Shown one piece after another: positions 9,294-47,825 of a stretch of 64,000 nucleotides of DNA. Position numbers and translations under genes: made by a program. This stretch comes from Rhyzopertha dominica (taxonomy: Eukaryota > Arthropoda > Insecta > Coleoptera > Bostrichidae): positions 52,845,325 to 52,909,324 of the forward strand of contig QCXZ01000064.1 in the NCBI GenBank assembly GCA_025024175.1, written 5' to 3'. Under the pieces are notes generated by a model that saw only the letters and a list, made by a program, of their open reading frames with translations, searched no databases and was not told the origin of the DNA. How positions within the stretch are numbered: position 1 is the stretch's first letter; each line of letters starts with the position of its first letter.

Positions 9294-10215
9294 ATGAATA
9301 CCACAATGAATAATTACGGAAATTATGATGGAAGGAAGCTGAGGTATTACCTCCGCCTAAAACTGATTCTCCTACCGAATAACAAGCATTTGCGTCCTAT
9401 TTCGATATTGCCCGTTTTGTCTAAACTTTTTGTAACGTTTCTTTGCAAACAAATTGGCTTACTAAAGTACGAAATTTTGCCTGAATGCCGATCGTGCTTT
9501 CGTTAAGGATATAGTTGCACAACCGCATCACTCCACGTTACAAATGATCTAATAAGGGCTAAAGATAAGGATTTTCTTTCAGTACTGGTGCTATTGGACT
9601 TGTCCAAGGCATTCGACTCTATTGTGCATACGTTTTTAAGTTCTATACTAAAATTTGTTGGTTTTGGGCCTTCTGCTGTTCACTTAATATCGAATTACCT
9701 TACCGGTAGATCTCTACGAGTTGAAGTAAATAATCAAATTTCTGAATCAATTAGTATTTATGTTGGAGTACCTCAGGGCTCTATTTTAGGTCCAATATTG
9801 TTTTCTACCTACACTTGCCACCTATATATGAATGTCAGACATTCCCGTGTTCATTTATATGCTAATGATGCCCAGCCTTATTATAGTTTTTNGCCTTCCT
9901 ACATTAGAGATGCTGTTAATAAAATTAATGAGGTTCTATCGTGTTGCTATTTGGAAACCAATCGGAATTTGAACGGGTCAGAGCTGGTATTAAGCTAACT
10001 ATAAATAATTATCAATTTATTCAGTTATGTCAGTAATATTCAGAACTGTATTAAGAAAGCTTATTTCAGTTAAAATTCGAGGGCTTTGTGTGTGTCGACC
10101 TAAGAGGAAAGGCATGGACGTACATGCTGAAGTAATCGGTTGAAAGTATCACCTGAGCATATCCAGCGGAAGACCTTGGAAAACGACAAATAAAGCTTAA
10201 TAATTATAATAATAT
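9294..10215 (+). mobile_element. 5'- and internally truncated non-LTR retrotransposon (CR1/jockey-like)
   Basis: The reverse transcriptase frame opens near 9294 and runs in one frame through a single stop (TAA 9504-9506) to 9998. It holds LRPISILPVLSKLF (fingers), LLDLSKAFDSIVH (motif A), VGVPQGSILGPILF (motif B) and a damaged motif C reading YANDAQ, where the first catalytic Asp of the YADD box is Asn. Thumb and connection regions are missing. The 3' end is recognisable at about 10188-10215 by AATAAAGCTTAATAATTATAA, nearly the same terminal string as the LINE ending at 46515. That implies an internal deletion between about 10000 and 10180. The copy is inactive. Confidence 0.8.
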
Positions 10216-27299: not shown

Positions 27300-27309
27300 C
27301 ATTATTCAG
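27300..27309 (+). repeat. Left copy of 10-bp target-site duplication of the retrozyme
   Basis: CATTATTCAG occurs here and again at 27902-27911, exactly bracketing the hammerhead-bearing inverted repeat. It is a direct repeat, as expected for an insertion by target-primed retrotransposition. Confidence 0.75.
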
Positions 27310-27331
27310 TTTGAAATAGACCATCTGTCAT

Positions 27332-27408
27332 GGTCAATCCACTCTCACTCTATGACTAGTTTCGCCCTGTTGGGGCTCATCAGGTAGGGGTAGATAGTAA
27401 ACTGACTA
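27332..27408 (-). ncRNA. Hammerhead ribozyme, type I, minus-strand copy
   Basis: On the minus strand the core CTGATGA lies at 27383-27377, followed by a 4-bp stem II (GCCC/GGGC, loop CAACA), GAAA at 27363-27360, a very short stem III (AC-TA-GT) and cleavage triplet GTC, so cleavage would fall between 27354 and 27353. Stem I pairs the TAG after the cleavage site with CTA before the core, and GAGAGT with ACTATC further out, with one mismatch; the first base pair of stem I is lost (A opposite C, where the other copy has G-C). All invariant core bases (CTGANGA, GAAA, NUH) are present. The minimal stem III is typical of Penelope and retrozyme hammerheads, which act as dimers or with an extended stem I. 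Activity of this copy may be reduced. Confidence 0.85.
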
Positions 27409-27693
27409 AAGCAAACCGTCACCTTTAACCGCGGCGTGGGGACTGGTGTATATGAGAATATAAGTGCCGATGCCCTCAGTGACATCTGAGCGGAACTCTG
27501 CGAGCTAGGCGGTCTATAACTGCGATAGACATCGACCTAGTGCAGGTTCCTGTCGATGGCATCCAAGAAGTTACTTCATCAGCAGAATGAAATAAATCAA
27601 ATGTCCTGGTTAATCCAAGTAGATGGCACTGAGGACTTCGGCCCGTATATAACCAGTCCGCCAGCCGCGGCCAAAAAGGCGACGGTCTGCTTT

Positions 27694-27768
27694 GGTCACT
27701 TTACTCTCTACCCCTACCTGATGAGCCCCATCAGGCGAAACGAATCGTAGAGTGAGAGTGGATTGACC
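27694..27768 (+). ncRNA. Hammerhead ribozyme, type I, plus-strand copy
   Basis: Core CTGATGA 27718-27724; stem II GCC (27725-27727) with GGC (27734-27736), loop CCATCA; GAAA 27737-27740; short stem III; cleavage after ATC, between 27746 and 27747. Stem I is intact: GTAG 27747-27750 pairs with CTAC 27714-27717, then an internal loop, then GAGAGT 27754-27759 pairs with ACTCTC 27703-27708, then GGTCA 27694-27698 pairs with TGACC 27764-27768. The internal loop in stem I is where loop-loop contacts with stem II occur in natural type I ribozymes. One lesion is visible: C27741 faces A27744 in stem III, changing the triplet from GTC to ATC, which still obeys the NUH rule. Compensated long-range pairing makes chance very unlikely. 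Confidence 0.9.
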
Positions 27769-27911
27769 AGGGCAGATTATTTATTTCATCCTGCTTACGG
27801 AGTAAGGAACCTGCACTTGGTCGATGTCCATCACAGTTATAGGCCGCCTAGCTCGCAGAGTTCCGCTCAGATGTCACTAAGGGCATCAACCCCCGTATTC
27901 TCATTATTCAG

Positions 27912-46514: not shown

Positions 46515-47757
46515 GTAATTATAATAATAAGCTTTATTGTTATAAACAAAGGGAAAACGGATAGTGTAACCTATCTTCCTCCGCTGCCCCACAATTCAAA
46601 TTACTTATACCTAAACTAAAATTAATGTAGTAACCTTATTCTAAAATACATCTAATTATTCTTGACCAGATTACGGCTTATTGACCTAAATGTAACAGGC
46701 GGTTTGTCTATAAAGATATGTACTTATTAAGTAACTTACGAGCTATAAAGGAAAAAGAGCCTTCATATTTGCAAGTGTAATGCTGAGGTGTGTTAAACAT
46801 ATTAAAATTGCGTATGTTGACGTTATGATGCTGTGATCTCCGAGAAAAAACAAACGCTTAAGTAATTCGGTTTTCCTGAACTTACAATATTATAAGACAA
46901 TATAGTCATCAGCTGACATATGCGAGCCTCGACTTTCAACTCATCCAACTGGTTGATGTAGGGAGTGACGTGTTCGCCAAATGGGATTCTGCAATCGAAC
47001 CTCATGCATGCATTCTGCACACGTTGAAGACGATTTTTATCGCACTGATTTGAGAAAAAAGAGTACGCCCCACAGCAATAGTCCGTATGTGGATAAATTA
47101 ACGTTTTAAGCAGTTGTAATTTCGTTTTTATATCTAGAAAGGTCCAGTAGTTGTATAGGTGTTTCAGTTTCACCATTGAGAGACGAAAAACGTGATCCAC
47201 ATGTAGACTAAACGTTAAAGAGTTGTCCATAATGATACCAAGGTGTTTGACTTGATCCACCCATTCAATTTGGAAATTTGTATTTACAAAATTTCTTTTC
47301 TTTAAAGAACCAATGCATAATGCTTTTGTTTTAGCGGCATTATTCAAGGTGTAAGTGAATATTCTATAGAGTTCGTCATTTACTGTTTCAATGGCAAGAG
47401 CAGTGTCGCCCACATCAAAACCGTAATAAAGTTGTATGTCGTCTGCACATAAATGTATGGAACATTTTTTAGCGCATTGAGGTAAATCAAAAATATAAAG
47501 AGCGAACAGAATGGGTCCGATAATACTCCCCTGAGGGACGCCGGAGAGGTTATGTCTGGAAGGCGATGAGCCTACACCTCTATCGTGGATAACCCGTTGC
47601 GATCGACCCATAGTATAGTTTTGAAACCACTTTACTTCCGTAGCACCGAAGCCCTGATATTGTAATTTGGCTAGAAGCATTTCAAAATTTACCAAATCGA
47701 AAGCTTTGGATTGATCCAATAATATTAATATAGATAGATTAGAGTGATCCAGAGAGG
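46515..47757 (-). mobile_element. 5'-truncated non-LTR retrotransposon with long open reverse transcriptase frame
   Basis: The minus-strand frame from 47757 to 46823 is open for over 300 codons. In the full open frame (start at 47812) LLDQSKAFDLVN (residues 31-42, motif A with D33), SGVPQGSIIGPILFALYI (90-107, motif B) and CADDIQLYY (122-130, motif C, Tyr replaced by Cys but both Asp kept) are present, followed by VKHLGIIMDNSLTFSLHVDH and the RLQRVQNACMRF connection. The ATG at 47812 lies in AT-rich flanking DNA; element sequence begins at about 47757, just before motif A, so the start is accidental. Downstream, frameshifted C-terminal text (SFSFIARKLLNK) continues to the 3' end near 46515, AATAAAGCTTATTATTATAA. 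This is the best-preserved retroelement in the window but it is truncated and probably inactive. Confidence 0.88.
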
Positions 47758-47825
47758 AAATATTTAAATATTTAATAATATTTTTATTTAATTTAATAAT
47801 ATAAATATTCAATAAAATTTAAGCT

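What the first reader, a model, noticed from the sequence alone, without database searches (positions are those of the whole stretch)
27300..27911. Hammerhead-ribozyme retrozyme present as an inverted pair with a 10-bp target duplication
Seen: two complete type I hammerhead cores (CTGATGA...GAAA...NUH) on opposite strands, each in a repeat unit of about 255-275 bp, with long-range stem I pairing kept in the plus copy (GTAG/CTAC, GAGAGT/ACTCTC, GGTCA/TGACC), and CATTATTCAG exactly flanking the whole block. Known: short ORF-less hammerhead repeats occur in animals as retrozymes and in Penelope-like elements, usually as head-to-tail tandems. Inferred: this is a retrotransposed circular or multimeric RNA inserted with inversion. 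The divergent 1.1-mer plus 1.1-mer structure with a clean 10-bp duplication is an unusual insertion form that speaks to mechanism.
Basis: partly seen in the sequence, partly recalled or inferred. Interest (0 to 1): 0.92.

Follow-up and report, generated by a model that had tools for sequence, protein, structure and literature searches.

The report
Ribozyme retroelement inserted in divergent form
A small gene-free mobile element that carries a self-cutting RNA sits here as two back-to-back copies, and its relatives in the same genome suggest that this is its usual form, made when a Penelope-type enzyme copies its RNA from both ends of one DNA break.

Summary
In detail: window 27310-27901 carries two retrozyme copies with type I hammerhead cores on opposite strands, flanked by an exact 10-bp duplication. 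It is not an odd insertion. Two searches of the same genome gave 59 distinct loci: 39 divergent (5' ends in the middle), 0 convergent, 20 of one orientation. The unit is 276-277 nt. Outer ends fall at two RNA positions, site I (~42 nt after the cleavage site) and site II (~180). Of 30 divergent loci with both ends at a named site, 29 have one of each, 1 has I/I, 0 II/II. Target duplications of 8-15 bp were found in 23 of 40 loci. A Penelope-like element (PLE) of this genome shows the same signature: neighbouring copies 20 divergent, 0 convergent; 14 of 14 fetched insertions have its 'tail' on exactly one side; duplications of 11-16 bp in 13 of 14. Best explanation: a PLE complex cuts both strands, each 3' end primes at its own site on retrozyme RNA, and the cDNAs are end-joined. 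PLE mobilisation was proposed before; I found this two-site, two-strand signature in no held paper. An empty-site search did not complete.

The parts
27300..27309 (.). left copy of the target duplication CATTATTCAG
27310..27617 (-). minus arm, about 1.1 units; outer (3') end at site I (phase 42), inner (5') end at phase about 20 by the alignment program (27610) or 27617 by eye
27348..27389 (-). type I hammerhead core of the minus arm; predicted cleavage between 27354 and 27353
   Evidence: 30.3 bits, E 2.4e-5; cleavage position by rule, read
27611..27620 (.). inner junction where the 5' ends of both arms meet; 3 unassigned nt, no microhomology in this locus
27618..27901 (+). plus arm, about 1.05 units with about 24 nt missing (phases 56-78); the alignment runs from 27614 to 27905, so its outer end at site II (phase 179) overlaps the target duplication by 4 nt
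27712..27752 (+). type I hammerhead core of the plus arm; predicted cleavage between 27746 and 27747
   Evidence: 23.0 bits, E 0.0057
27902..27911 (.). right copy of the target duplication CATTATTCAG

Best explanation
The block is one insertion of a non-autonomous hammerhead retrozyme, moved in trans by Penelope-type (PLE) machinery. A PLE complex cuts both strands of the target with a stagger of about 13 bp. Each of the two freed 3' ends primes reverse transcription on retrozyme RNA: one at site I (about 42 nt after the hammerhead cleavage site), the other at site II (about 180 nt). Both enzymes copy towards the RNA 5' direction, often past a full unit, so the template is a circle or an uncleaved multimer. 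The two antisense cDNAs meet with their 3' ends and are joined by end joining. The result is a divergent pair of arms with a target duplication. Shown from sequence: divergent form, two end sites, one of each per insertion, duplications, scattered inner junctions, and the same signature in a PLE of the same genome. Inferred: that this PLE, or a relative of it, is the enzyme; that both ends use one RNA molecule; that the RNA is circular.
For: (1) Orientation: 39 of 59 distinct loci divergent, 0 convergent, 20 one orientation. (2) Ends: 63 of 69 outer ends lie at phases 35-57 or 159-190, windows set after seeing the data; 29 of 30 divergent loci with both ends at a named site have one of each; for the second sample, chosen with a single unit as query, the chance of at least 19 of 20 under independent choice is 1.9e-5. 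(3) Target duplications of 12 bp or more in 15 of 40 loci against 0 of 1560 mismatched flank pairs. (4) Between-arm distance within a locus (mean 0.020, 18 younger loci) is below that between loci (0.043), 0 of 10000 permutations. (5) 27 inner junctions: phases scattered; 14 with 1-5 nt microhomology, 13 with 1-14 unassigned nt, which speaks for end joining. (6) PLE of the same genome: GIY-YIG matches closer than 6 kb are 20 divergent, 1 tandem, 0 convergent of 144 listed; in 14 of 14 fetched insertions the about 40-nt tail is on exactly one side, and 13 of 14 have an exact duplication of 11-16 bp (null maximum 10 of 90 mismatched pairs). (7) A PLE protein from the green anole cuts and extends both strands in vitro and starts at two internal RNA sites (PMC11167929, parts 1-2 of 4 read).
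Against: No sequence is shared between retrozyme and PLE beyond the hammerhead 3' half; a local alignment scores no better than shuffles (236 of 300 at least as high). Only 6 of 18 younger loci have their own + arm as the closest + arm, and few rare variants are shared by both arms, so one template molecule is not proved. 17 of 40 loci show no duplication above chance. One locus (L035) has I/I ends and no duplication; five of the 40 fetched loci and four further clusters have an end that is elsewhere or unresolved. 20 of 59 loci show one orientation only. Linear multimers explain arms longer than one unit as well as circles do. A stricter mechanical rule gives lower counts: 25 of 40 divergent, 18 one-of-each, 2 I/I (one of the two, L009, is due to a stray 30-nt piece beyond the duplication).
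Confidence: 0.8

Rival explanations
1. LINE-type twin priming: an apurinic-type LINE enzyme starts at the RNA 3' end from one nick and internally from the other, giving 5' inversions.
For: It also gives divergent arms with target duplications; Jockey-like LINE reverse transcriptases are present.
Against: No poly(A) or fixed 3' end at one side; both ends start at internal, defined RNA sites, one of each per insertion; arms overlap and exceed one unit; the PLE of the same genome shows the same rule.
Confidence: 0.08
2. Self-priming: one cDNA or an antisense RNA folds back on itself and is extended, giving a palindrome, as was suggested for PLEs in a bdelloid rotifer (PMC3846280, Discussion read).
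For: Divergent inverted repeats; the RNA is highly self-paired.
Against: Arms differ in length and in phase at the junction, the junctions are scattered with short microhomology or filler, and both outer ends are start sites with a target duplication. Snap-back predicts arms ending at matching phases.
Confidence: 0.07
3. DNA-level rearrangement: two independent insertions or an inversion within a tandem array.
For: Head-to-tail arrays exist (L041, L040, L043).
Against: Duplications flank the whole two-arm block, arms of one locus are closer to each other than to other loci, and the order is divergent in 39 loci and convergent in none.
Confidence: 0.05

Closest known systems
Animal non-LTR retrozymes with type I hammerheads (Cervera and de la Pena 2020, PMC7229834; abstract, passages and Discussion read)
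   Same: Type I hammerhead in each unit, unit of about 300 nt, no long frame, head-to-tail multimers, target duplications longer than 4 bp; the paper names PLEs as a strong candidate for mobilisation.
   Different: The word 'inverted' does not occur in that main text. Here the usual form is divergent, with two fixed start sites used once each. GC of the younger units is 52-57%, above the under 50% given in the paper.
Penelope-like elements, in vitro PLE from the green anole (PMC11167929) and rotifer PLEs (PMC3846280)
   Same: Both strands cut and extended, internal start sites, head-to-head inverted terminal parts, tail on one of the inverted ends, duplications of 8-10 bp reported in the rotifer and 11-16 bp in the PLE measured here.
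   Different: The retrozyme has no protein, its two sites are about 138 nt apart rather than about 40, and it shares no detectable sequence with the PLE examined.
LINE-1 twin priming (search listing only)
   Same: Two primers at one break, divergent segments, target duplication.
   Different: There one start is at the RNA 3' end; here both starts are internal and fixed.

Membership tests
animal non-LTR retrozyme | type I hammerhead in the unit | tested here: met
   all scores below Rfam gathering thresholds, significant by E-value
animal non-LTR retrozyme | unit of 150-450 nt without protein-coding capacity | tested here: met
   276-277 nt; longest stop-free stretch in the repeated unit 51 aa
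animal non-LTR retrozyme | occurs as head-to-tail tandem units | tested here: met
   arms up to 7.45 units
animal non-LTR retrozyme | GC below 50% (descriptive feature in the paper) | tested here: not met
   younger units 0.52-0.57, window insert 0.495, window 0.353; a description of the known cases, not of the mechanism
animal non-LTR retrozyme | expressed as circular RNA after self-cleavage | not testable with these tools
   no RNA data
Penelope-like element (autonomous) | one frame with reverse transcriptase and GIY-YIG endonuclease | tested here: not met
   the insert has no such frame; it works like a PLE insertion but is not a PLE
Penelope-like element (the partner candidate L051) | reverse transcriptase plus GIY-YIG endonuclease | tested here: met
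   GIY-YIG 32.2 bits in the last 197 aa (the whole 864-aa frame gave no match); 95 homologues, the closest of full length, many with PF00078, five or more with PF01541
PLE-type integration | divergent arms, two start sites, one per end, 11-16 bp duplication | tested here: met
   for the retrozyme; for the PLE; retrozyme duplications run from 8 to 15 bp

The most novel reading that the evidence does not exclude
A single retrozyme RNA circle bridges both ends of the break: it carries two start sites on opposite sides of the circle (about 138 of 276 nt apart), one for each subunit of a dimeric PLE complex, and is copied twice at once in rolling-circle fashion. Two sites used once each would then be the ticket by which a gene-free circular RNA borrows a telomerase-related reverse transcriptase.
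Probability: 0.45. Interest if true: 0.88.

Novelty: new variant of a known kind. Interest (0 to 1): 0.78.

Why it matters
How animal retrozymes move is open; PLEs have been the favoured guess without a shared integration signature. The present loci give one: divergent form, two start sites used once each, and a duplication of about 13 bp, shared with a PLE of the same genome. It also makes a PLE mechanism that was seen in vitro readable from genomes, and it can be tested with purified PLE protein and a 276-nt RNA.

Tried and rejected
Rfam at gathering threshold finds nothing in the window or in 10 related loci; the hits are below threshold but significant. An exact HHR pattern in viral contigs: 0 matches. 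Sequence similarity of retrozyme and PLE near the start sites: none above shuffles. RNAalifold on the unit alignment found 3 pairs with changes on both sides and missed stem I, since 10 of 28 rows are partial; the named structure was then counted. Paralogous empty sites among the fetched loci: no hit spans a junction. Host: nearest named relatives of a LINE frame and of the PLE are from beetles (Callosobruchus chinensis; Coccinella septempunctata), so an insect, perhaps a beetle, is inferred; nothing more is claimed. Pattern search for all units did not complete. Three papers that may describe PLE or hammerhead arrangements (PMC8557442, PMC4209133, PMC5785218) are not held, so a prior description there cannot be excluded.

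Full report
What is there. The insert at 27310-27901 has a minus-strand arm of about 1.1 units and a plus-strand arm of about 1.05 units. Their 5' ends meet near 27611-27620 and their 3' ends face outwards. An exact 10-bp duplication flanks the block. The hammerhead cores are supported by Rfam E-values but lie below the gathering scores. The arms are old: distances between their compared pieces have a median of 14.7%, whereas the 10-bp duplication is unchanged.

Relatives. A DNA search of the window's own genome (479 Mb, 138 contigs) with the insert gave 248 matches from 40 scored of 1247 candidate places. I fetched 39 further loci and treated the window's own as the fortieth. A second search with a single unit, which cannot favour two-arm loci by design of the query, gave 160 matches from 40 scored of 1119 candidates; 150 rows were listed and form 40 clusters. 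Twenty clusters coincide with fetched loci, and C47:29332 and C47:55548 are mirror copies counted once, so 59 distinct loci were seen. Both samples hold the best-scoring places only, so they lean towards younger copies.

Form. By the BLAST segmentation, with L045 mended by the second segmentation, 28 of 40 fetched loci have both orientations, and in each the minus arm precedes the plus arm. In one search, 28 of 40 clusters are divergent, 0 convergent, 12 of one orientation. Together: 39 of 59 divergent, 0 convergent, 20 of one orientation. A stricter mechanical rule on the 40 loci gives 25 divergent and 15 of one orientation.

Two end sites. Numbering from the cleavage site, 63 of 69 outer ends lie at phases 35-57 (38 ends) or 159-190 (25 ends) in the second segmentation; the windows were set after seeing the data, and a few stray pieces are included. 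By, 22 of the 28 divergent fetched loci have one end of each kind, 1 has I/I (L035), 0 II/II, and 5 have an end elsewhere (L013, L017, L018, L025, L031). One search adds 7 loci with one of each and 4 that are unresolved or differ. In sum 29 of 30. The rule gives 18 one-of-each, 2 I/I and 5 others of 25. In circular folds of 7 units, site I is unpaired in 4 and partly in a small hairpin in 3; site II is mostly unpaired in 6 and partly paired in 1. The sites are about 138 nt apart, half of the 276-nt circle; whether that matters is unknown.

Target duplications. 23 of 40 loci have a match of 8 bp or more at the edges: 8 (1), 9 (2), 10 (3), 11 (2), 12 (3), 13 (7), 14 (4), 15 (1). The other 17 have 4-7 bp, which is what chance gives. 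Mismatched flank pairs reach 12 bp or more in 0 of 1560 and 9 bp or more in 16 of 1560; real pairs reach 12 bp in 15 of 40.

Template. Units within one arm (median distance 0.028, 79 pairs) and units of the two arms of one locus (0.021, 57 pairs) differ less than units of different loci (0.083, 6437 pairs). Among 18 younger two-arm loci the arms are closer than in any of 10000 permutations (0.020 against 0.043), yet only 6 of 18 have their own plus arm as the closest one, and rare variants are mostly found in one arm only. So both arms come from the same or closely alike RNA; one molecule is not proved. Arms that pass the cleavage site uncut need a circle or an uncleaved multimer.

Inner junctions. 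27 junctions were read: 14 have 1-5 nt of microhomology, 13 have 1-14 unassigned nt, and the phases are scattered. This is what end joining of two independent cDNA ends would leave; fold-back priming would not.

The PLE. A GIY-YIG search of the genome gave 144 listed matches (150 of 2080 candidates scored). Neighbours closer than 6 kb are 20 times minus-plus, once minus-minus, never plus-minus. I fetched 14 insertions. Thirteen were chosen because they were minus-plus pairs, so their orientation is no further evidence; L051 was chosen as a tandem and proved to carry a 149-bp inverted end piece. In 14 of 14 one end carries the tail (about position 1391 of the reference) and the other stops at about 1353. 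Exact duplications of 11-16 bp occur in 13 of 14; L048 has 12 bp with one mismatch by eye. In 90 mismatched pairs the longest match is 10 bp. L051 has an 864-aa frame with an unread base; its last 197 aa match GIY-YIG (32.2 bits), the whole frame gave no Pfam match at E 0.001, and a protein search found 95 relatives, many carrying PF00078. PLE copies keep the 3' half of a hammerhead (stem II, GAAAC, GTC) without a canonical CUGAUGA box. Target edges of both elements lean to A at the second base outside (19 of 26 PLE edges, 24 of 36 retrozyme edges; the genome is AT-rich and the edges are uncertain by a base or more).

Known work. PMC11167929 (parts 1-2 of 4 read) shows that a PLE protein cuts and extends both strands and starts at two internal sites that bound the tail. 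PMC3846280 (passages and Discussion read) reports head-to-head inverted ends, a tail on one of them and 8-10 bp duplications in rotifer PLEs. PMC7229834 (abstract, passages, Discussion) proposes PLEs as movers of animal retrozymes. PMC7761336, PMC8490949, PMC8969392 and PMC6431247 were seen as passages. In the searches I saw no description of divergent retrozyme insertions with two start sites; three relevant papers are not held.

Verdict. The retrozyme is a new member of a known family. Its regular insertion form is new as far as I could search, and it ties the family to PLE integration with a testable signature.

Noticed in passing
window 46826-47818 (-) and 9507-9995 (+): Two non-LTR (Jockey-like by eye) reverse transcriptase fragments (RVT_1).
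   Followed up: partly
L045:3391-3957: A retrozyme insertion lies beside a LINE reverse transcriptase frame (RVT_1, 81.3 bits); a good place for an empty-site test, which did not complete.
   Followed up: partly
G000:C47:29332-30540 and C47:55548-56756: The same retrozyme insertion appears twice as mirror images on one contig: an inverted duplication or an assembly fold-back.
   Followed up: no
G000:C14:25529-26308: Listed arms both stop at about phase 1, the hammerhead cleavage site; could be a cleaved linear template or simply the capped list.
   Followed up: no
L028:2377-2793: A one-orientation insertion with a 13-bp duplication whose inner end lies at phase 179, that is at site II.
   Followed up: no
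L048-L051: The PLE keeps the 3' half of a hammerhead but not a canonical CUGAUGA box.
   Followed up: partly
L029:917-1039: A near-perfect inverted repeat that weakly matches microRNA families on both strands, more likely a small DNA transposon; not checked.
   Followed up: no
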